From the NCBI RefSeq assembly GCF_030551875.1, contig NZ_JAUOZU010000002.1:62001-126000 (forward strand): a DNA stretch of 64,000 nt, written 5' to 3'. The position numbers and the translations under genes are program-made. Positions 5,800 to 22,971 of the stretch are shown piece by piece. The number at the start of each line of letters is the position of its first letter. Position 1 is the first letter of the stretch. Under the pieces are notes generated by a model, which had not been told where the DNA came from, did not search any database, and saw only the letters and a list, made by a program, of their open reading frames with translations. The DNA comes from Fluviirhizobium alvei (lineage in GTDB: Bacteria; Pseudomonadota; Alphaproteobacteria; Rhizobiales; Rhizobiaceae).

Positions 5800-7023
5800 T
5801 CATGGTCGCTTTCCTTTCGAACGATGGTCGAGCGCGAACAGTCCTGCAATGCCAAGGATTACCATGACGACGCCGATCCAGTTGCTGCCCGAATAGCCGA
5901 GCGTTGCCGCGCCGATCGAAAACGCCAGGGCACTCATGCCTGTGGAAACGAAAGAGGTGATCTGGTTGAGCGACGTCCCAAACCCGGGCCTCTCGGGCGA
6001 AAGTTCATGATAGTAGGACAACGGCAGCGACAGGATCGCCGAGACCCCGCAGGCATTCGGGATCGTCAGCAGATAGATCTCGATCGGCGTCGAAGCCTGG
6101 CTGATCAGTGCGAGGAAAACTGCATAGATTACAGTGCCGATACCCAGTACCTGCAGGACGGTCAGTCTCTGCAGACACATGCCCCACATCAGCATGAAGG
6201 GAATTTCCAGCCCGGCCGTGAAGCCGGCAACGAACCCGACATCGGTGATCTTCCCGCCAGCAAGGCCAGTCATGATCAGCGGTTGGATCACCGATAGCAG
6301 CCGCGGCGCCGCTGTAATTAGCGACATGGACACAACAAGGCCGATCATGTTGGCGGCGGTCAGTTCACGCAGCGAGGCGAAGAAGGGTGAACGCGGCGCA
6401 TCCTGCGATCGTTCGAGCGAGGGCATCAGAAGCCAGACGATTGTGAAGCTCGCAAGACAAGCGACAGCGGAAAAGCCCCAGGCTGGTAAGAGGCTGTTCG
6501 AGTTTGCGAGCCAGAGCGCGATCAGTCCCGGCACCAGAATCCAGGATCCGGAATAGAGTGCACGCACGACCTGTGTCACTGCGCTGGCTTCACGGTTGCC
6601 GAGGGGGGAGCTGAATGCGCGGATCGAGGAGAACAAAAGCGCGAAACTGGCATTGGACAGCGGCACCAGCAGCACGGCGGCGAACACAAAGACAGCCATG
6701 TGTGGCAAAAGATAAACAAGGCCAAAACCGATGATGCCAGCAAGATTGACAAACAGAATCATGGGCTTGACATTGCGTATGGCATCGGAAACCAGCGCGA
6801 TGCTGACGCCATAGACCAGATTGGCGAGGGCAATGACGAACAGCAACAGCGACAGCATGACGTTGCTCATGCCGAATTCCTTGATCGCTACGATCGAAAG
6901 ATAGGGTAGAGTTGCGCCGTAGGTCAGGCCGGTTGAAAAGAGTGCGATCGTCGCGACCCGGATGGCGGGATTGTGCAGGATGATCCTTATGGCGGCAAGC
7001 ATCGGCAAGCGTTCCTTTCGCAT
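5800..7023 (-). CDS. MFS transporter, sugar-efflux (Set) like
   Basis: Twelve-helix major facilitator protein of 407 aa. The N-half has the pattern LTYGATLPYLSIVAIKEFGM with the loop ...VSDAIRNVK in place of the usual MFS A-motif, and the C-half contains PLSYYHELSPERPGFGTSLN, resembling the sugar-efflux transporter (SetA) group, which exports sugars or sugar-like toxic compounds. Substrate is not determinable here. The start at 7023 was kept; a second Met is at residue 8. It is transcribed divergently from the RTX gene at 7350 across a 326-bp intergenic region. Confidence 0.85.
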   Translation of the reverse strand: MRKERLPMLAAIRIILHNPAIRVATIALFSTGLTYGATLPYLSIVAIKEFGMSNVMLSLLLFVIALANLVYGVSIALVSDAIRNVKPMILFVNLAGIIGFGLVYLLPHMAVFVFAAVLLVPLSNASFALLFSSIRAFSSPLGNREASAVTQVVRALYSGSWILVPGLIALWLANSNSLLPAWGFSAVACLASFTIVWLLMPSLERSQDAPRSPFFASLRELTAANMIGLVVSMSLITAAPRLLSVIQPLIMTGLAGGKITDVGFVAGFTAGLEIPFMLMWGMCLQRLTVLQVLGIGTVIYAVFLALISQASTPIEIYLLTIPNACGVSAILSLPLSYYHELSPERPGFGTSLNQITSFVSTGMSALAFSIGAATLGYSGSNWIGVVMVILGIAGLFALDHRSKGKRP

Positions 7024-7349
7024 CCTCCATCGGCAATTCGGATGGCGATCTCAAGTCAATTGAATTGATGTGAAACATCGGTGCGGGTGAAGAATACCGT
7101 TGAGGTCGCCGCCGAATTGTCCGCCTTTGCGGCTGCGAAGAGGGCTTATACCTAGCGTCGATGATAGGAATCGATTGCGCCTGCCAGACCAGCGCATGGC
7201 TCAACCTTCGATCCTTGTTTCGAAGCGAGCAGCGGCAAGTCGTGCCGAAGCCGTTCCTGAAACAATTGAAACAAGATTGCCGTCTGCAAGAAGAAGGACT
7301 GAAACAATAGGCCTTAAATGTGGTCCCAACAAACCGAGGGATTTCCACA
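7024..7349. other. Divergent intergenic region
   Basis: Gene-free 326 bp between the MFS gene (leftward) and an RTX gene (rightward). It must hold both promoters. It contains a degenerate copy of an element shared with position 27993 (see the repeat at 7149). I see no supported small ORF; the short frames here lack ribosome-binding sites. Confidence 0.6.
7149..7180 (+). repeat. Dispersed intergenic element, copy 1
   Basis: The core AGCGTCGATGATAGGAATCG matches AGCGTCGATGATAAGAACCG in the intergenic hairpin at 27983-28033, with TACC one base upstream in both. Here the flanking arms no longer pair well, so it looks like a decayed copy. Confidence 0.5.
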
Positions 7350-8576
7350 ATGGCAAAGACATTCATTCCGGGCGGCGAAGCCGTCTTCATCGCTGACAAG
7401 GCAGATACGACCTACATCCTGAAGGCCGGCACGTCGCTGTCGGTCATGGCAGATTCTGCCATCGATGCACACGATGCCGCCGCCAACCGCACGTTCCTGC
7501 TCAACGGCAGCATTTCGGGTTCCAATATCGGCATTGTCGCCGGTAGCTATTTTTCCCAGCCGGAAAATCTCGATGTCCGGGTCGGAGCCAATGCCTATAT
7601 CAGCGCGCTCAACGCGGGCGTTACCGTCTATTCCAAGCATGGCAGCATTGCCAACGCCGGCACAATTTCCGCAACCGCCAACGAGAGCAAGGCGATCTAC
7701 TTTGAAGGCTCGGACGGCACGATCGAAAACAGCGGTTCGCTTTCTGCCTATTACGGAGTGAGCGTCACCGGCGACGATAACAGCGTCGTCAACAGCGGCA
7801 CGATCAACACCACCTATAAGGGCGTATTCTTCAATACATCCTCAGGCGACGAGAACAGCCTGAACAACAGTGGTGTCATCAAGGCCGTTCATCCCGGCTT
7901 TGCAACTTTTGGCGTTTCTGGCGACGGCGGAAATGAGCATATCACCAATTCCGGCCGCATCGTCGGTGATATCTTTTTGCAAGGCGGCAACGACACCTTC
8001 ACGTCGAAGGGCGGCACGGTAAAGGGCGAGATCATCGGCGGAGAAGGCAGCGATACATACCGTATTGACAGCAGTGCCTTTGTGATCACCGAGGAAGCCG
8101 ACCAGTCCGGCATCGACCGGGTCTATACATCCGCAAGCTACACGGTCGCCACGGGTATCGAACAGACAACGCTCACCGGCAAGGCCGACATCAATCTCAC
8201 TGGAACGATTGTTTCGGATGTTCTCAACGGCAACCGGGGTGACAATAGAATCGTCGGCGGTGTCGGCCTCGATTATATTACAGGTGGGGCCGGTAATGAT
8301 CGTCTGACCGGCGGTCCGGGCGGCGGCGTTTTGGATACCGTCGATATCTTCTTTTTCAAGGCGCATTCGGGCCACGATGTGGTGAACGATTTCCAGGATG
8401 GCATCGATCGGCTCAATCTCGCCAACTACAAAGGCATCGAGGGGTTTGACGATCTCGATGGTCACATCAAGCAGGTCAATGACGAAACCGTCGTGATCTC
8501 GCTTCTGGACGGCGACACGATCCGCCTCAAGAATATGGATCTCGCCGATATCACCGCGGCGGACTTCCAGTTCTGA
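7350..8576 (+). CDS. RTX-like secreted protein with beta-helix-type N-terminus
   Basis: 408-aa predicted type I secretion cargo. Residues ~20-210 are Asn/Ser/Gly-rich repeats of the kind NSGTINTTYKGVFF and NSGVIKAVHPG, as in right-handed beta-helix/autotransporter-like passenger repeats. These are followed by degenerate RTX repeats (GGNDTF; GGEGSDTY; NGNRGDNRIVGGVGLDYITGGAGNDRLTGG across two segments). The C-terminus ends in ITAADFQF, similar to the ends of the other RTX proteins in the window. There is no Sec signal peptide. The ATG at 7350, preceded by GAGGG, was chosen over a GTG-like upstream extension. Function is unknown; an adhesin or surface-layer role is possible. Confidence 0.85.
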   Translation: MAKTFIPGGEAVFIADKADTTYILKAGTSLSVMADSAIDAHDAAANRTFLLNGSISGSNIGIVAGSYFSQPENLDVRVGANAYISALNAGVTVYSKHGSIANAGTISATANESKAIYFEGSDGTIENSGSLSAYYGVSVTGDDNSVVNSGTINTTYKGVFFNTSSGDENSLNNSGVIKAVHPGFATFGVSGDGGNEHITNSGRIVGDIFLQGGNDTFTSKGGTVKGEIIGGEGSDTYRIDSSAFVITEEADQSGIDRVYTSASYTVATGIEQTTLTGKADINLTGTIVSDVLNGNRGDNRIVGGVGLDYITGGAGNDRLTGGPGGGVLDTVDIFFFKAHSGHDVVNDFQDGIDRLNLANYKGIEGFDDLDGHIKQVNDETVVISLLDGDTIRLKNMDLADITAADFQF

Positions 8577-8735: not shown

Positions 8736-11700
8736 TTACCTCTTTCGCGGACGACCGCGCGAGGCATTTCGCTTCTTCGGGGCCGCATTTTCGTGTCGGC
8801 GAGACAAAGTCAAACGATCATAAATTGTTTGTGCCGGGCGGCGAACTTCGGGATTGGAGTCGAGCAAATACTGTTCGCCTCTTATGTATGCGGAAAATGC
8901 GGCATAGATAGGCGCGACCCGGTCCGCAAAGCCGGTTTCTTCCATCCAGATGAGCAAACGCTCACCAAATCCTTTGCGTTCCGCGAGCTTCAGCAAACGC
9001 TCAAAGTCATCTGCGAAATCCCATCCTTCCTGGACAAGATCTTTCTCGAGGACCGCCGCAAGGTGCGTTGTCGCAGACCCGAAATTCTCTTGCGCCAGTT
9101 CCAGGCCCGCATCCAGCAGACCAGCCCCCCCGGAAGGCAATTCCCGCAGGTTTTCGCGGATGGCGCTGGCTTCAGACAGACGGTTGTTTAGAATATAAAG
9201 CCAAGCGAGATTGGCATTCGCGAGAAGGGGGATTCGTGTCGAGGCCGCCTTGTAAAGAGCCTCAGCGCGCGCGATATCTTGGCCGAGATCCAGCAACAAA
9301 TTGGCAAGACGGACCTGGATTGATTGAACAAGTTCCGTATCTAGCCCTTTTTCTCCTGAAATCCGATCGAGCGCTCGCTCATAGGCCGCAATTGCGCCTG
9401 TTGTGTCGCCGTTAAAGCCAAGGACAAAAGCCTTGTTGAATAGAACTCCTGCAACCAGTTCCCGCAATTCTGGTCGGTCGTCATCACAATAACGAGCAAT
9501 GAGCTCGTCATAGGCGGCAATCTCGGCAACCGTTTCGCCGTTCTGGCCATAGGCGACTCCCTTGTAGGCCAGCGCCTTGGCAACCAGTTCCCGCAACTCA
9601 GGTCGTTCGTCGTCATGATAGTTGGCGATAAGCTCGTCACAAGTGGCTATCGCGCCTGCCAAGTCGCCATTCTGGCGAAGAGCATAGCCTTTGTTGAATA
9701 GCGCTTCGGCAACTTGTACGCGCACTTCCGGTTGATCATCCTTGCCATAGCGAGCGACAAGCTCGTCGTAAGCCGCGACTTCGGCCGTCGTATCTCCAAT
9801 TCGGCTAAGCGCATCTCCCTTGTTTCGCAGCGCCTTGGCCACCAGTTCACGCAATTTAGGCTGTTCGTCCTCACCATAGCGGCTGATGAGCTCGTCATAG
9901 ATACCTATCTCGTTCACCGTTTCGCCGTTCTGGCCATAGGCAATTCCCTTGTTGGTCAGCGCCTTGGCGACCTGCTCCCGCAACTCTGATCGTTCTTCAT
10001 TAACATAGCGGGCGATGAGCTCGTCATAGGTGGCAATCGCGCCTGCCATTTGGCCGTTTTGGCGAAGAGCAACGCCCTTGCTAAGCAGCGCTTTGGCAAC
10101 CTGTTCCTGCAATTCGGCTCGTTCGTCTTCGCGATAGCGTTCGATGAGCTCGTCATAGGCAGCAATCGCTGCTGTCTTTTCGCCTTTCTGGGAAAGTGCA
10201 ATGCCCTTGTTTCGCAGTGCCTTTGCGACGTCTTCCCACAATTCGGGCCGTTCGTCCTTGCCATAGCGAGCGATAAGCTCGTCATAAGTCGCAATTTCGG
10301 CCGTCGTATCGCCAATGAGGCCAAGGGCAACACCCTTGTTTCGCAGCGCCTTGGCAACCAGTTTTTGAAATTCAGAACGCTGGTCTACACCATAGCGCGC
10401 GATGAATTCGTCATATGCAGTGATCGCAGCCACTGTGTTCCCATTCAGGCGAAGGGAAACGCCCTTGATGAGCAGCGCAAACGCAGCCTGTATTTGTAGC
10501 TCGATCCGTTCGTCATTGCCATAGTGGGCACCAACTTCATCAAAGGCAGCGATTGCCGACACTATGTCGCCGTTCTGGCCAAACGCAATGCCTCGCTGGA
10601 TCAAGTTAACAGCGTCAGAAAAGTCCTCGTCGTCAATGGTTCGAGCCGTATCGGTAGTTTCCACCCCATCAGGCCCAAGCCCTAGGCGCGGAGATGTTCT
10701 TGCATGTTGTTCATCCTCGTGTATCGGCAGCGCGCAACTACGAATCGCTTCATTCAGGGCAAATTCGAAATCCGGTGATAATCTTTCCGTGTAACCTGAA
10801 GAAACTGTACGGTTGGCTAATTTGTTGAGATCACTCGACGAGTAGAAATTGGTCAGAAAGCTGACCAGCCAGCGCATTTTCTGTTTCGTCCGTCTGGTAC
10901 CATGCCGCATCAGGTACCAGATATTCAAAAAACGCTCGACAATCTGGTGCCCCGCATAGGAGCCGGATGTTTGCGTCTGTTCGATAAAGCCATCCTTGCG
11001 CAATCTTGCGAGCAGCGGCGATAATGTTGTGGATGCGATCCGTGTCTTTTTGGAGAGTTCGCCGGTGGTGACAGGATCCCAATGAAGCGCAATCGCATCA
11101 ATAACAGCGCGCTGTTGCGGCGTTTGATACTCTTCCACGCGCGATTTGTAATAGGGGGTCACCTGGTCAAGCAGAACTTCAAGATCAGCCATGGCCGCCT
11201 CGGTCTCATTAACCTCCAGGAGACGGTAAATCAGCGTGAGAATACGGGGATTCCCCCCCGTCAAAACATGAAGCGTCTTCAGTCGCTCCGGTTGGGTATC
11301 GAGCACTTCCAAAACGTGAAGACCATGTGGGCCGCGTCGCGCCGCAAGCGAGCGCATGCAGTACTCAGTTTCATGTTCATTCAGGGGTTCAAGATGATGA
11401 GGTTGAAAAAACTCGTAAAATGCCGCGTCTCTGTCCGCGTTGTCCTCTAAATAATGCGCAGCAGCTCCGATGATTATGGGGCCATTGTTGGCTTGCAGAA
11501 ACCGCCGGAGTGCCCATTTGTCCTCACTTGGTAAGGCATTGAGGATGAGATCGAGATTGTCGACCAACAACACGGCCCGCCGATTCAGCTGCTGCATTTC
11601 CTTTCTGAACTGTTCACCAGCGCGTAGCCCGTTGGCCCACGTTTCATTTGCCAGCTCTCGGTCTAAGCGGTCTGCGAGATCGTTTTTTGCATTCGCCTCG

Positions 11701-12032
11701 CCCCATTCAGCCAGAGCTTCCCCACAGTTGCGCCAAAAATCATCGAGGGTAAGGACGTTGTATTGCTCCTCGCGGAATCCCAAGGGAATGTAGCGCGATG
11801 ACAGGTCCGGCGTTTCCGTGATCGCGATGGCAAGTCGCCGCAAAAGCGTTGTCTTGCCCATGCCTCGCGGGCCGATCAGAATGTTATGGTGCCCCAAACC
11901 ACTTTCATCTGCCACTTTCAGTCTTCGAATGAGCGCATCCAGCATATCCCGGCGCGCCGTAAAATTCGCCACGAAATCAGCGTCATTGAGGCTGGAGTGA
12001 TTGTAGAGAGCCGTCGCGGGTGGTTTTGTCAT
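8736..12032 (-). CDS. Orc/STAND-like P-loop ATPase with winged helix and long TPR array
   Basis: 1098-aa soluble protein. An AAA-type NTPase domain occupies residues ~20-300: Walker A GPRGMGKT at 54-61, Walker B AVLLVDNLD at 153-161, and the GGNPRIL motif near 259-265 typical of the Orc/Cdc6- and archaeal-ATPase-like group. A winged-helix-like segment follows (~305-375). Residues ~473-905 form about ten tandem TPR-like units of 43-44 residues, then a less regular helical C-terminus ending in a basic tail (GRPRKR). Its start overlaps the stop of the upstream ATPase by ATGA, so the two are co-translated. ATPase plus helical-repeat sensor is the general plan of STAND regulators and many defence proteins; a defence role is inference only. 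Base composition is visibly less GC-rich than its neighbours. Confidence 0.88.
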   Translation of the reverse strand: MTKPPATALYNHSSLNDADFVANFTARRDMLDALIRRLKVADESGLGHHNILIGPRGMGKTTLLRRLAIAITETPDLSSRYIPLGFREEQYNVLTLDDFWRNCGEALAEWGEANAKNDLADRLDRELANETWANGLRAGEQFRKEMQQLNRRAVLLVDNLDLILNALPSEDKWALRRFLQANNGPIIIGAAAHYLEDNADRDAAFYEFFQPHHLEPLNEHETEYCMRSLAARRGPHGLHVLEVLDTQPERLKTLHVLTGGNPRILTLIYRLLEVNETEAAMADLEVLLDQVTPYYKSRVEEYQTPQQRAVIDAIALHWDPVTTGELSKKTRIASTTLSPLLARLRKDGFIEQTQTSGSYAGHQIVERFLNIWYLMRHGTRRTKQKMRWLVSFLTNFYSSSDLNKLANRTVSSGYTERLSPDFEFALNEAIRSCALPIHEDEQHARTSPRLGLGPDGVETTDTARTIDDEDFSDAVNLIQRGIAFGQNGDIVSAIAAFDEVGAHYGNDERIELQIQAAFALLIKGVSLRLNGNTVAAITAYDEFIARYGVDQRSEFQKLVAKALRNKGVALGLIGDTTAEIATYDELIARYGKDERPELWEDVAKALRNKGIALSQKGEKTAAIAAYDELIERYREDERAELQEQVAKALLSKGVALRQNGQMAGAIATYDELIARYVNEERSELREQVAKALTNKGIAYGQNGETVNEIGIYDELISRYGEDEQPKLRELVAKALRNKGDALSRIGDTTAEVAAYDELVARYGKDDQPEVRVQVAEALFNKGYALRQNGDLAGAIATCDELIANYHDDERPELRELVAKALAYKGVAYGQNGETVAEIAAYDELIARYCDDDRPELRELVAGVLFNKAFVLGFNGDTTGAIAAYERALDRISGEKGLDTELVQSIQVRLANLLLDLGQDIARAEALYKAASTRIPLLANANLAWLYILNNRLSEASAIRENLRELPSGGAGLLDAGLELAQENFGSATTHLAAVLEKDLVQEGWDFADDFERLLKLAERKGFGERLLIWMEETGFADRVAPIYAAFSAYIRGEQYLLDSNPEVRRPAQTIYDRLTLSRRHENAAPKKRNASRGRPRKR
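9320..10616 (-). repeat. Tandem ~129-bp TPR-coding repeat array
   Basis: Within the large ATPase gene, about ten consecutive units encode variants of AKALRNKGVALGQNGDT plus AEIAAYDELIARYGKDERP and ELREQV. Each unit is 43-44 codons. Phrases such as GAGCTCGTCATAG recur at this period on the + strand. The boundaries are approximate. They are coding repeats, not a spacer-containing array. Confidence 0.75.
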
Positions 12033-13165
12033 TCTGCTTCATACTCAAGCCAGTATTTACGGACCAGACCGGAACGAAAAACGTAGCGCTCACCATTCTT
12101 CATGATCAGGCCATCATTGCAAAGCATTGATAATATGTCCATTGTCTGTCGTGAGCTGAGGTGCCCCTGCGTTTGAGACAGATGGGCATTTATGGTGTCC
12201 CGGCGCTCACCTTCTACAGTCCGCGACAAAAGGCCAAGGATTTGTTTTGCGATATCTCTGTCGATTGCTGGCAAGTTTTTATCGACATGCTCGCGCCAAA
12301 CGGCAAACTCGGAGCGCCTGTTAGGTTGAAGCAGTTTGGCGAAGGCGGCGTCTATGTCGCGCATGGTTGCCAATGGAAGAGCATGGTCCGGAATCGTGTC
12401 GGATGGTCGAACCTCGTTGGCGACCATTTTCAGGTAGTAAGGAGCAAGCCACCCCAACTCCGAGAACATATAGTCGAAATCCTCGTCGCGCGCATCGAAC
12501 AGGTGAGTAATCTGCTGCTGAATCTTGGCGTCACGAATGAATGAGCGCGCCTCATCCGGCTTGAAGGGTTCGAGAACAAAAGTTTCGAAATCCACGAAGG
12601 CGCCTTCCAAGCCGTAACGTCTGGCAATTGTGTCAAGGCCGATGGAACCCGTAATGAGCCATCGGACATTTTTGTACTGCTGCTGCATGGCGCGCAGCTT
12701 GTAGGCAAATGCGTTCGCATCGCGTGGGTCTTTTTCTGCGAGAGCCAGGAAAAAATAGGCTACTTCATCAACAATAATCGCCGTCTTTGGATGCGTATCA
12801 TTCAGCGATGCTATCAGTATGGCTGAAAACTCGATTGGGTCCACTTTGCCAAGGGCTTCCATCGGCTTGTCGCCCCACTGGCCGGCCAAAACCGCACCAA
12901 TTCGTTGACGCGCATGTGCAAAGAAGCGCTCCTTTGCGGTATTTAGCCCTTCAATTCGCGAGCACAATTCTCGGGCAAATTCGCTCGGCGTCCGAATTCC
13001 TTCCACATCGACTTCGACAGCATGCCATCCGTCATCGCGAAGGTCCTGGGCAAGCCGATTTATAAGCCATGTTTTGCCAATGCGCCTGGGTGCTGGCATG
13101 TGAATGCTTAACCCGGCTTCCAGCTTGCGCTTGAGTAGGTTGCGCTCAGTCGTGCGGTTATGCAT
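12029..13165 (-). CDS. P-loop ATPase, partner of the TPR ATPase
   Basis: 378-aa ATPase of the archaeal-type AAA group. Walker A PAPRRIGKT is at residues 24-32, Walker B AIIVDEV at 129-135, and a sensor-like LITGSIGL at 170-177. The C-terminal ~100 residues (LLSRTVEGERRDTINAHLSQTQGHL and onward) look like a winged helix. A GGAG site stands 6 bases before the ATG. It is the first gene of a two-gene operon, overlapping the TPR ATPase by four bases. Two abutting palindromes lie just upstream. Specific function is not known; paired NTPases with a repeat sensor suggest a regulated assembly, perhaps anti-phage. Confidence 0.85.
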   Translation of the reverse strand: MHNRTTERNLLKRKLEAGLSIHMPAPRRIGKTWLINRLAQDLRDDGWHAVEVDVEGIRTPSEFARELCSRIEGLNTAKERFFAHARQRIGAVLAGQWGDKPMEALGKVDPIEFSAILIASLNDTHPKTAIIVDEVAYFFLALAEKDPRDANAFAYKLRAMQQQYKNVRWLITGSIGLDTIARRYGLEGAFVDFETFVLEPFKPDEARSFIRDAKIQQQITHLFDARDEDFDYMFSELGWLAPYYLKMVANEVRPSDTIPDHALPLATMRDIDAAFAKLLQPNRRSEFAVWREHVDKNLPAIDRDIAKQILGLLSRTVEGERRDTINAHLSQTQGHLSSRQTMDILSMLCNDGLIMKNGERYVFRSGLVRKYWLEYEAE

Positions 13166-13182: not shown

Positions 13183-13214
13183 TATTCAAAAATGAATATA
13201 TTCAAAATAGAATA
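13183..13214. promoter_or_regulatory. Two abutting 16-bp palindromes (operator candidate)
   Basis: TATTCAAAAATGAATA (13183-13198) is followed without gap by TATTCAAAATAGAATA (13199-13214). Each is an inverted repeat TATTC-N6-GAATA, and the pair is a direct repeat. They begin 18 bp upstream of the ATPase start at 13165, where a promoter/operator is expected. A repressor or phage-type regulator binding site is inferred. Confidence 0.6.
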
Positions 13215-13262
13215 AATGTCAACATCCTGTCTCGCCGCCATTTATCAGGCGACCCCTATTGC

Positions 13263-22050: not shown

Positions 22051-22971
22051 TCAGCCGCCGCTCTTGCACCAGGGGTCGCGGTCGGGGTCCGAGCCCAGTG
22101 TTTCGACAAGGTAGTCGACGAACAGCCGCGTTCGTGCCGGCAGGAAGCGTTTGTGCGGGTAAAGCACATGCAGGTTCAGGGCGCCTGCGTCGTGGTTCGG
22201 CAACAGGGTCACCAACCGTCCGGCCGCAATGTCGCCGCCGCAGACGAAGGTCGGCAGCACGGCTATGCCGCTGCCATTGAGCGCCAGACGGTTGAGAGTT
22301 TCGGCACTTGTGGACAGAATGCGCGGTTGCAGGCGGATCTCCACGCGATTGCCATCGCACTCGAAGGCGAGATTCACCCACGGCGAGGGCACGCTGAAGG
22401 CGAGGAAGACATGGCGGGTGAGATCCTCAGGCGTTTCGGGTTCGCCATGACGTTCGATATAGTCGGGACCGGCAACGACCCGGAAATGCGAGCGGGCCAG
22501 CCGACGCCCGATCAGGCTTCCATCGAGTGTGCGCGCCACCCGAAGCGCAAGGTCGAAGCCGTCCTGCACCAGGTCCACCTGCCGATTGGAGAACTCAAGA
22601 AACATATCGACATCCGGATGCAGGTCGAGGAAGCGCGAAATCAGCCGCGACAGATGCGTGTCCCCGAATTCGGCTGGAGCTGTGATCCGCAGCGTTCCCC
22701 GCGCACTCTGTGTCACCTTGCCGGCCTCGGCTTCGGCATCGTCGATTGCGGCAAGGATCGACAGGCACCGTTCAAAATAACTCTGGCCGGCGGCGGTGGT
22801 CGACAGATGCCGGGTGGTGCGGTTCAGAAGCCGTGCGCCTACCTTGTCCTCGAGTTGCGAGACATGCCGCGTCACCATGGCGGGCGACAGGCGCAACTGG
22901 CGGGCAGCGGCTGAAAAGCTGCCGAGTTCCACCACCTTCACATAGGCTTGCATGCTGGCGAACCGGTCCAT
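22051..22971 (-). CDS. LysR-family transcriptional regulator
   Basis: 306-aa regulator: N-terminal winged helix-turn-helix (residues ~5-63; FSAAARQLRLSPAMVTRHVS QLE) and a C-terminal ligand-binding domain with patterns GTLRITAPAEFG and RLALNGSGIAVLPTFV. It belongs to the subgroup often annotated with CrgA/DmlR-like repressors. The ATG at 22971 starts the conserved MDRFASMQAYVKV; a TTG 33 bases upstream is less likely. It is divergent from two small putative monooxygenase-type genes at 23081-23688, its probable targets. Confidence 0.9.
   Translation of the reverse strand: MDRFASMQAYVKVVELGSFSAAARQLRLSPAMVTRHVSQLEDKVGARLLNRTTRHLSTTAAGQSYFERCLSILAAIDDAEAEAGKVTQSARGTLRITAPAEFGDTHLSRLISRFLDLHPDVDMFLEFSNRQVDLVQDGFDLALRVARTLDGSLIGRRLARSHFRVVAGPDYIERHGEPETPEDLTRHVFLAFSVPSPWVNLAFECDGNRVEIRLQPRILSTSAETLNRLALNGSGIAVLPTFVCGGDIAAGRLVTLLPNHDAGALNLHVLYPHKRFLPARTRLFVDYLVETLGSDPDRDPWCKSGG

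What the first reader, a model, noticed from the sequence alone, without database searches (positions are those of the whole stretch)
13183..13214. Two abutting 16-bp palindromes before the ATPase pair
TATTCAAAAATGAATA and TATTCAAAATAGAATA lie end to end, each an inverted repeat with TATTC/GAATA arms. They start 18 bp from the start codon, where two dimers of a repressor could block transcription. An accessory operon with dedicated operator but no adjacent regulator gene suggests control by a host or by one of its own winged-helix proteins.
Basis: seen in the sequence. Interest (0 to 1): 0.5.

Follow-up and report, generated by a model that had tools for sequence, protein, structure and literature searches.

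The report
Self-repression operator of paired STAND ATPases
Two end-to-end DNA palindromes in front of a pair of ATPase genes are a landing site whose layout is shared by related gene pairs in many bacterial groups, most likely so that the larger ATPase, which resembles animal and plant immune-receptor ATPases, can switch off its own operon.

Summary
The two 16-bp palindromes (13183-13214) are real. They overlap a near-consensus promoter (TTGACA-N16-TATATT) of a two-gene accessory operon: A (378-aa ATPase) and B (1098-aa STAND/ORC-like ATPase with a MarR-like winged helix and TPR repeats). One abutting pair alone could be chance (34 of 200 shuffles have one). Conservation makes it real: 78 homologous promoters show a strong 16-bp period (z 20), and 55 of 78 carry a 5-bp-arm/N6 array, against 18 of 2144 random segments of the same loci. 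The layout is constant while the arm letters change (TATTC, TATAC, ACAAC, ACGAC...). Loci with B but no A keep the sites before B. Across A and B, operator similarity follows B's winged-helix residues 321-350 better than any other stretch. Best reading: B's winged helix binds the array and represses its own operon; a host regulator is unlikely. Against: phylogenetically independent contrasts are too few for significance, a same-branch co-change test found nothing, and nearest-neighbour prediction from the helix is barely better than from the rest of B. Nothing was tested at the bench, and the operon's role (perhaps phage defence) is unproven.

The parts
13199..13214 (.). palindrome 1 (promoter-proximal to -35): TATTC-N6-GAATA
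   Evidence: register supported by loci whose copies are spaced apart or single
13183..13198 (.). palindrome 2, abutting: TATTC-N6-GAATA
13217..13222 (-). -35-like hexamer TTGACA
   Evidence: 11 of 12 matches with the -10; shuffles mean 0.2 sites in the region
13195..13200 (-). -10-like hexamer TATATT, straddling the junction of the two palindromes
   Evidence: the same TTGACA-N16-TATATT in L109
13172..13175 (-). Shine-Dalgarno-like GGAG, 6 bases before the ATG of A
   Evidence: read
12029..13165 (-). gene A, 378-aa P-loop ATPase of the 2qen/2fna-like STAND kind
   Evidence: (AAA_22 above cut-off)
8736..12032 (-). gene B, 1098-aa STAND/ORC-like ATPase + winged helix + TPR repeats; overlaps A by ATGA; proposed autorepressor
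10941..11120 (-). B residues 305-364: MarR-like winged helix
   Evidence: model; MarR-family chains match 305-363
10995..11033 (-). B residues 334-346: recognition helix (TTLSPLLARL...)
   Evidence: helix 334-346; best tracks the operator letters

Best explanation
The two palindromes are the operator of the A-B operon. A dimer of B's MarR-like winged helix sits on each 16-bp palindrome (two 5-bp half-sites 11 bp apart), side by side over the -35/-10 region, and keeps RNA polymerase off, so the STAND ATPase limits its own expression. Shown by computation: the sites, the promoter overlap, the conserved geometry, the fold of B, retention of sites in B-only loci, and covariation localised to B's winged helix.
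For: Geometry: in 120 nt before gene A of 78 loci, lag-16 self-match z 20.2 and lag-32 z 9.8 (50 shuffles); perfect 5-bp inverted repeats with 6-base spacer in 50 of 78 loci against a mean of 14.4. Specificity: array score 2.4 or more in 55 of 78 promoters, 18 of 2144 random segments, 8 of 350 other upstream regions. Promoter overlap in the window and in 18 of 20 hand-picked loci. Constant layout with changing letters across hosts of many phyla. B-only loci L112, L122, L144, L145 keep sites before B, and L082 and L094 where A appears decayed. Localisation: in a scan of 875 12-column windows of A and B (68 loci), the 17 best windows all lie in B 321-350 (best partial r 0.372; best elsewhere 0.217 in A; 0 of 2000 label permutations reach the best); repeated on 67 loci (54 automatic + 13 typed, 63 output), best 0.366 at B 329-340, best outside 300-368 0.196. 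B residue 339 ranks first of 897 columns by mutual information. P339 goes with T at arm position 3 in 24 of 24 loci, other residues in 15 of 43. Winged helix modelled with good confidence and matched by MarR-family chains.
Against: Descent is not excluded as the cause of the residue-letter link: independent pairs number only 3 to 8 and are not significant; Fitch changes of P339 and arm-3 T share 0 branches, 1.0 expected. Nearest neighbour by helix predicts the operator hardly better than by the rest of B (0.363 against 0.374; 14 held-out loci 0.336 against 0.357; random pairs 0.525). One locus with intact A and truncated B (L041) still has the sites. 23 of 78 promoters did not reach the array score. 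No binding or expression data.
Confidence: 0.74

Rival explanations
1. Gene A's C-terminal winged-helix-like domain, not B, binds the operator.
For: A is the promoter-proximal gene; A also ends in a winged-helix-like segment (alignment); L041 keeps the sites with A intact and B truncated.
Against: A's C-terminal columns show no excess link to the operator letters (316-375, p 0.99); best A window is 125-136 at 0.217, below 17 B windows; four B-only loci keep sites before B.
Confidence: 0.1
2. A host regulator, not encoded by the operon, uses the sites.
For: No dedicated regulator gene beside the operon in the window. A WYL gene lies before the distant Segatella copy.
Against: The layout follows the operon across distant hosts with changing letters; the genome has no second abutting TATTC site, only two isolated perfect ones; the operon is an accessory insertion.
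Confidence: 0.08
3. The array is a loading platform for an ORC-like or STAND oligomer (origin-box-like or signalling), and promoter control is secondary.
For: B's fold is as close to archaeal Orc proteins as to CED-4.
Against: Arrays are short (2 or 3 sites in 50 of 55 loci) and sit a median 30 nt before the start codon, as an operator would.
Confidence: 0.06
4. Chance palindromes in an AT-rich promoter.
For: 34 of 200 shuffles of the window have an abutting pair.
Against: Homologous promoters.
Confidence: 0.02

Closest known systems
STAND NTPases with an internal winged helix (CED-4, Apaf-1, plant NLRs, bacterial Avs3)
   Same: B residues 6-390 align with CED-4 (Z 19.3, 4.7 A), NRC4 resistosome (Z 19.5, 6.3 A) and RPP1 (Z 18.3, 4.8 A); Avs3 is in the Foldseek list; C-terminal repeats.
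   Different: In those proteins, as recalled, the winged helix is a structural switch part, not a promoter-binding domain; no effector domain was recognised in B or A.
Archaeal Orc1/Cdc6 and 2qen/2fna ATPases
   Same: Best structural matches (2qen Z 22.1, 4.0 A; 2fna Z 20.6, 4.3 A; Aeropyrum Orc2 Z 20.1, 4.2 A). Orc proteins bind DNA with the winged helix (recalled; titles of 2qby and 2v1u are DNA complexes).
   Different: The sites here overlap a promoter and number two or three, and B carries TPR repeats.
MarR-family repressors
   Same: B's winged helix matches MarR-family chains; short palindromic operators overlapping promoters (recalled).
   Different: Here the domain is inside a 1098-aa ATPase; the Pfam MarR_2 score is below its cut-off (22.4 against 27).
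Self-regulated defence operons: BrxR/CapW WYL repressors
   Same: Inverted repeats before the operon bound by an encoded winged-helix protein (BrxR, PMC9122601, passages seen; CapW, PMC9122588, start of abstract seen).
   Different: There the repressor is a separate dedicated protein; here the proposed repressor is the ATPase itself.

Membership tests
STAND/ORC-clade ATPase (protein B) | P-loop NTPase core | tested here: met
   AAA_16 32.7 bits, cut-off 32.6; invariant G57, G59, K60
STAND/ORC-clade ATPase (protein B) | winged helix directly after the ATPase core | tested here: met
   model, helices 305-315, 323-330, 334-346 and strands 350-353, 361-364; alignment through residue about 390 with CED-4 and Orc2
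STAND/ORC-clade ATPase (protein B) | C-terminal repeat (sensor-like) region | tested here: met
   TPR families at 601-815, several above cut-off
STAND/ORC-clade ATPase (protein B) | ATP-driven oligomerisation | not testable with these tools
   no experiment
MarR-family repressor | MarR winged-helix sequence | tested here: inconclusive
   PDB MarR chains E 1e-4 to 6e-3 by profile; Pfam MarR_2 below cut-off
MarR-family repressor | small stand-alone dimer with flanking dimerisation helices | tested here: not met
   domain lies inside a 1098-aa ATPase; not filed as a MarR protein
Autoregulated operon | operator overlapping the operon's own promoter | tested here: met
Autoregulated operon | encoded protein binds the operator and changes expression | not testable with these tools
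   only indirect:
WYL (BrxR/CapW) controlled defence operon | dedicated WYL regulator gene | tested here: not met
   Pfam scan of A and B and the ORF list show no WYL-type gene named beside the operon; neighbours scanned were 5 ORFs only
Known anti-phage system | match to a PADLOC system model | tested here: inconclusive
   only weak partial hits (mad8 1.4e-5 for B, PDC-S01 0.004 for A)

The most novel reading that the evidence does not exclude
An NLR-like STAND ATPase uses its switch domain, the winged helix, as the DNA-reading head of its own repressor. Trigger-driven ATP binding and oligomerisation would pull the winged helix off the operator, so immune-type activation and amplification of its own operon are one physical event. 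Each lineage has evolved its own operator letters, giving a readable helix-to-DNA code.
Probability: 0.35. Interest if true: 0.82.

Novelty: new variant of a known kind. Interest (0 to 1): 0.6.

Why it matters
If true, the domain that in CED-4 and plant immune receptors serves as an internal switch also serves, in a widespread bacterial relative, as a promoter-binding repressor. That would link sensing and expression control in one protein and explain how potentially harmful STAND ATPases stay low until needed. It also gives a practical tag: 16-bp-period 5-N6-5 palindromes mark members of this operon family, and the natural variation of arms and helices allows direct tests of specificity.

Tried and rejected
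Single-pattern search of the window and genome for TATTC-N6-GAATA: no regulon beyond the operon; two other perfect but isolated sites, both inside listed ORFs.

Search with protein A alone: 2 of 201 relatives, one being the genome itself and the other a weak partial match; 6 of 385 class genomes; genome contigs none; plasmids 5 records; phages none. Protein B in phages: none. Viral contigs with B alignment: 51 stretches, no relative. Repeat draws gave genomes already seen.

Residue-level code as proof: independent pairs, same-branch co-change and nearest-neighbour prediction did not establish it; reported as against. Permutation p-values do not correct for relatedness.

Rows dropped. Of the 80 loci (best 80 of 252 confirmed), 63 gave a gene-A promoter; the 17 others were looked at. 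L010/L024, L039 and L040 (distant ATPases without B) and L043 (near copy of L017) were left out. For some searches, half-sites of 15 loci were assigned by hand and 8 loci (L012, L013, L016, L038, L107, L111, L118, L120) were dropped as unclear; one search used automatic half-sites for 54 loci and typed ones for 13 (L059 left out). L012 and L016 show CAGATATCTG copies at 16-bp steps rather than 5-N6-5. Some automatic gene-A starts are doubtful (e.g. L046, L118). The array score was shaped after seeing the pattern; controls were scored with the same function.

A printed membership of A in PADLOC PDC-S01 (E 0.004, residues 1-89) was judged too weak.

Full report
Observation. The two palindromes are at the stated place: TATTCAAAAATGAATA (13183-13198) and TATTCAAAATAGAATA (13199-13214), end to end, 17 bases before the ATG of the 378-aa gene A, which is on the minus strand. 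Alone they prove little: 34 of 200 shuffles of the window contain an abutting perfect pair of some kind, and the window has a second, GC-rich pair at 22103.

Promoter. On the minus strand TTGACA (13222-13217), 16 bases, TATATT (13200-13195) is an 11-of-12 match; shuffles of the region give 0.2 promoter-like sites on average. The -10 hexamer straddles the junction of the palindromes and the predicted start would fall in the second one. GGAG stands 6 bases before the ATG. The arrangement fits repression by blocking polymerase (inference). The plus strand also has a weaker 9-of-12 match inside the array.

The operon. Gene A (378 aa) matches AAA_22 just above cut-off and by profile the archaeal ATPases 2qen and 2fna (profile A2 built from relatives). 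Gene B (1098 aa) overlaps A by 4 bases and has an ATPase core, a winged helix and TPR repeats. The AlphaFold model of B 1-470 has mean pLDDT 86.9 and pTM 0.85; the winged helix is helices 305-315, 323-330, 334-346 and strands 350-353, 361-364. Best structural matches are 2qen (Z 22.1), 2fna (Z 20.6), archaeal Orc2 (Z 20.1), the NRC4 resistosome (Z 19.5) and CED-4 (Z 19.3). By profile, the winged helix matches MarR-family chains.

Accessory character. A was found in 2 of 201 relatives: this genome, and a weak 75-residue match. In 6 congeners examined (of 8 that matched the flank), the flanks at about 4.83 kb and 13.28 kb of the window lie 1.8 to 3.9 kb apart instead of about 8.4 kb, so the stretch with A-B is absent there.

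Relatives. A class search gave a 53%-identical A in another alphaproteobacterial genome plus five distant matches in all, a phylum search nine genomes, plasmids five records, and a scan of 84,980 genomes with a B alignment 252 confirmed relatives, of which the best 80 were returned, from Pseudomonadota, Bacteroidota, Chlorobi, Acidobacteria, Planctomycetes, Myxococcota and others by record title.

Conserved geometry. In 78 promoters (63, 15 earlier including the window) the 120 nt before A match themselves at a lag of 16 far above shuffles (0.373 against 0.270, z 20.2; lag 32 z 9.8). Perfect 5-bp inverted repeats occur at even spacers only: 50 of 78 loci at spacer 6 against 14.4 expected, while odd spacers stay near background. 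An array score reaches 2.4 in 55 of 78 promoters, 18 of 2144 random segments and 8 of 350 other upstream regions. Of the 55, 29 have two sites and 21 three; the last site ends a median 30 nt before the start codon. The average half-site is W-A/C-T/A-A/T-C followed by an A/T-rich centre; the inner C is present in 78%. Letters differ between loci: ACAAC 18, TATAC 11, TATTC 10 of 68. L036 has four abutting 16-mers with ACGAC/ACGTC arms, Bacteroidota mostly TATAC, the window's nearer relatives L090, L105, L109, L110, L116 and L123 TATTC or AATTC. L109 has the same TTGACA-N16-TATATT. In 18 of 20 hand-picked loci the best promoter match overlaps the array (no shuffle control).

Who binds. A constant layout with drifting letters, carried with the operon, argues for a regulator encoded in the operon. 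B-only loci L112 and L122 have the array 61 and 39 nt before the open frame of B, and B-only copies on Agrobacterium and Sphingobium plasmids have CCAAC-type sites before B. In L082 and L094 A appears reduced to a fragment while B and array stay. The opposite case, L041, has A, a truncated B and sites.

Covariation. Mutual information of arm letters with 897 columns of A and B puts B residue 339, in the recognition helix, first; 10 of the top 30 columns lie in B 305-366 (hypergeometric 1.2e-5, not corrected for descent), and A's C-terminal part shows no excess. A window scan that partials out overall similarity puts the 17 best of 875 windows in B 321-350 (best 0.372; best A window 0.217; 0 of 2000 permutations). 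With automatic half-sites for 54 loci and 13 held-out loci the peak is again B 329-340 at 0.366 against 0.196 outside 300-368. P339 goes with T at arm position 3 in 24 of 24, other residues in 15 of 43.

Against. These statistics do not remove common descent. Independent pairs number 3 to 8, mostly in the expected direction, none significant. Same-branch co-change of P339 and arm-3 T is 0 with 1.0 expected. Nearest-neighbour prediction from the helix is hardly better than from the rest of B (0.363 against 0.374; held-out 0.336 against 0.357).

Function of the operon. Neighbours suggest defence islands: QatD and an N-6 DNA methylase near the Moraxella copy, a Pycsar effector and AbiE genes near the Sphingobium copy, cyclase-domain and ThiF genes near the Agrobacterium copy. 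Only these named plasmid records were inspected, without a control. PADLOC matches are weak, so defence is a guess.

Literature. Searches for STAND, winged helix, autoregulation, palindromes and defence listed no description of this operator or two-ATPase operon; that covers listings of an open-access library only. Passages of PMC12839542 (STAND/ORC-Cdc6 ATPases with winged helices in BREX) and PMC9122601 (BrxR binds inverted repeats before its gene) were seen; for PMC9122588, PMC9122589 and PMC13373217 only the start of the abstract.

Verdict. Operator real and conserved: about 0.97. Regulator encoded by the operon: about 0.85. It is B, acting as repressor: about 0.74.

Noticed in passing
L039 3.9-4.1 kb and L040 5.9-6.1 kb: Single A-like ATPases without B also have strong inverted repeats right before their start codons, with a different, longer layout; self-operators may be common in this ATPase group.
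   Followed up: partly
L016 (and L012) upstream of gene A: A divergent clade carries CAGATATCTG palindromes at 16-bp steps instead of 5-N6-5 sites: same period, different core.
   Followed up: no
L042 4850-5758: In the Segatella plasmid a WYL-domain gene lies just upstream of the A-like/short B-like pair, perhaps a different mode of control.
   Followed up: no
window 9588-10232 (-): B's TPR region is built of closely similar repeats of about 40 residues, suggesting recent repeat expansion.
   Followed up: no
L041 7082-7339: B is truncated soon after its P-loop behind an intact A on a Methylomonas plasmid.
   Followed up: partly
window 4.8-13.3 kb: The stretch absent from six congeners also holds an MFS-type gene (5800-7023) and an RTX-type repeat protein gene (7320-8576).
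   Followed up: partly
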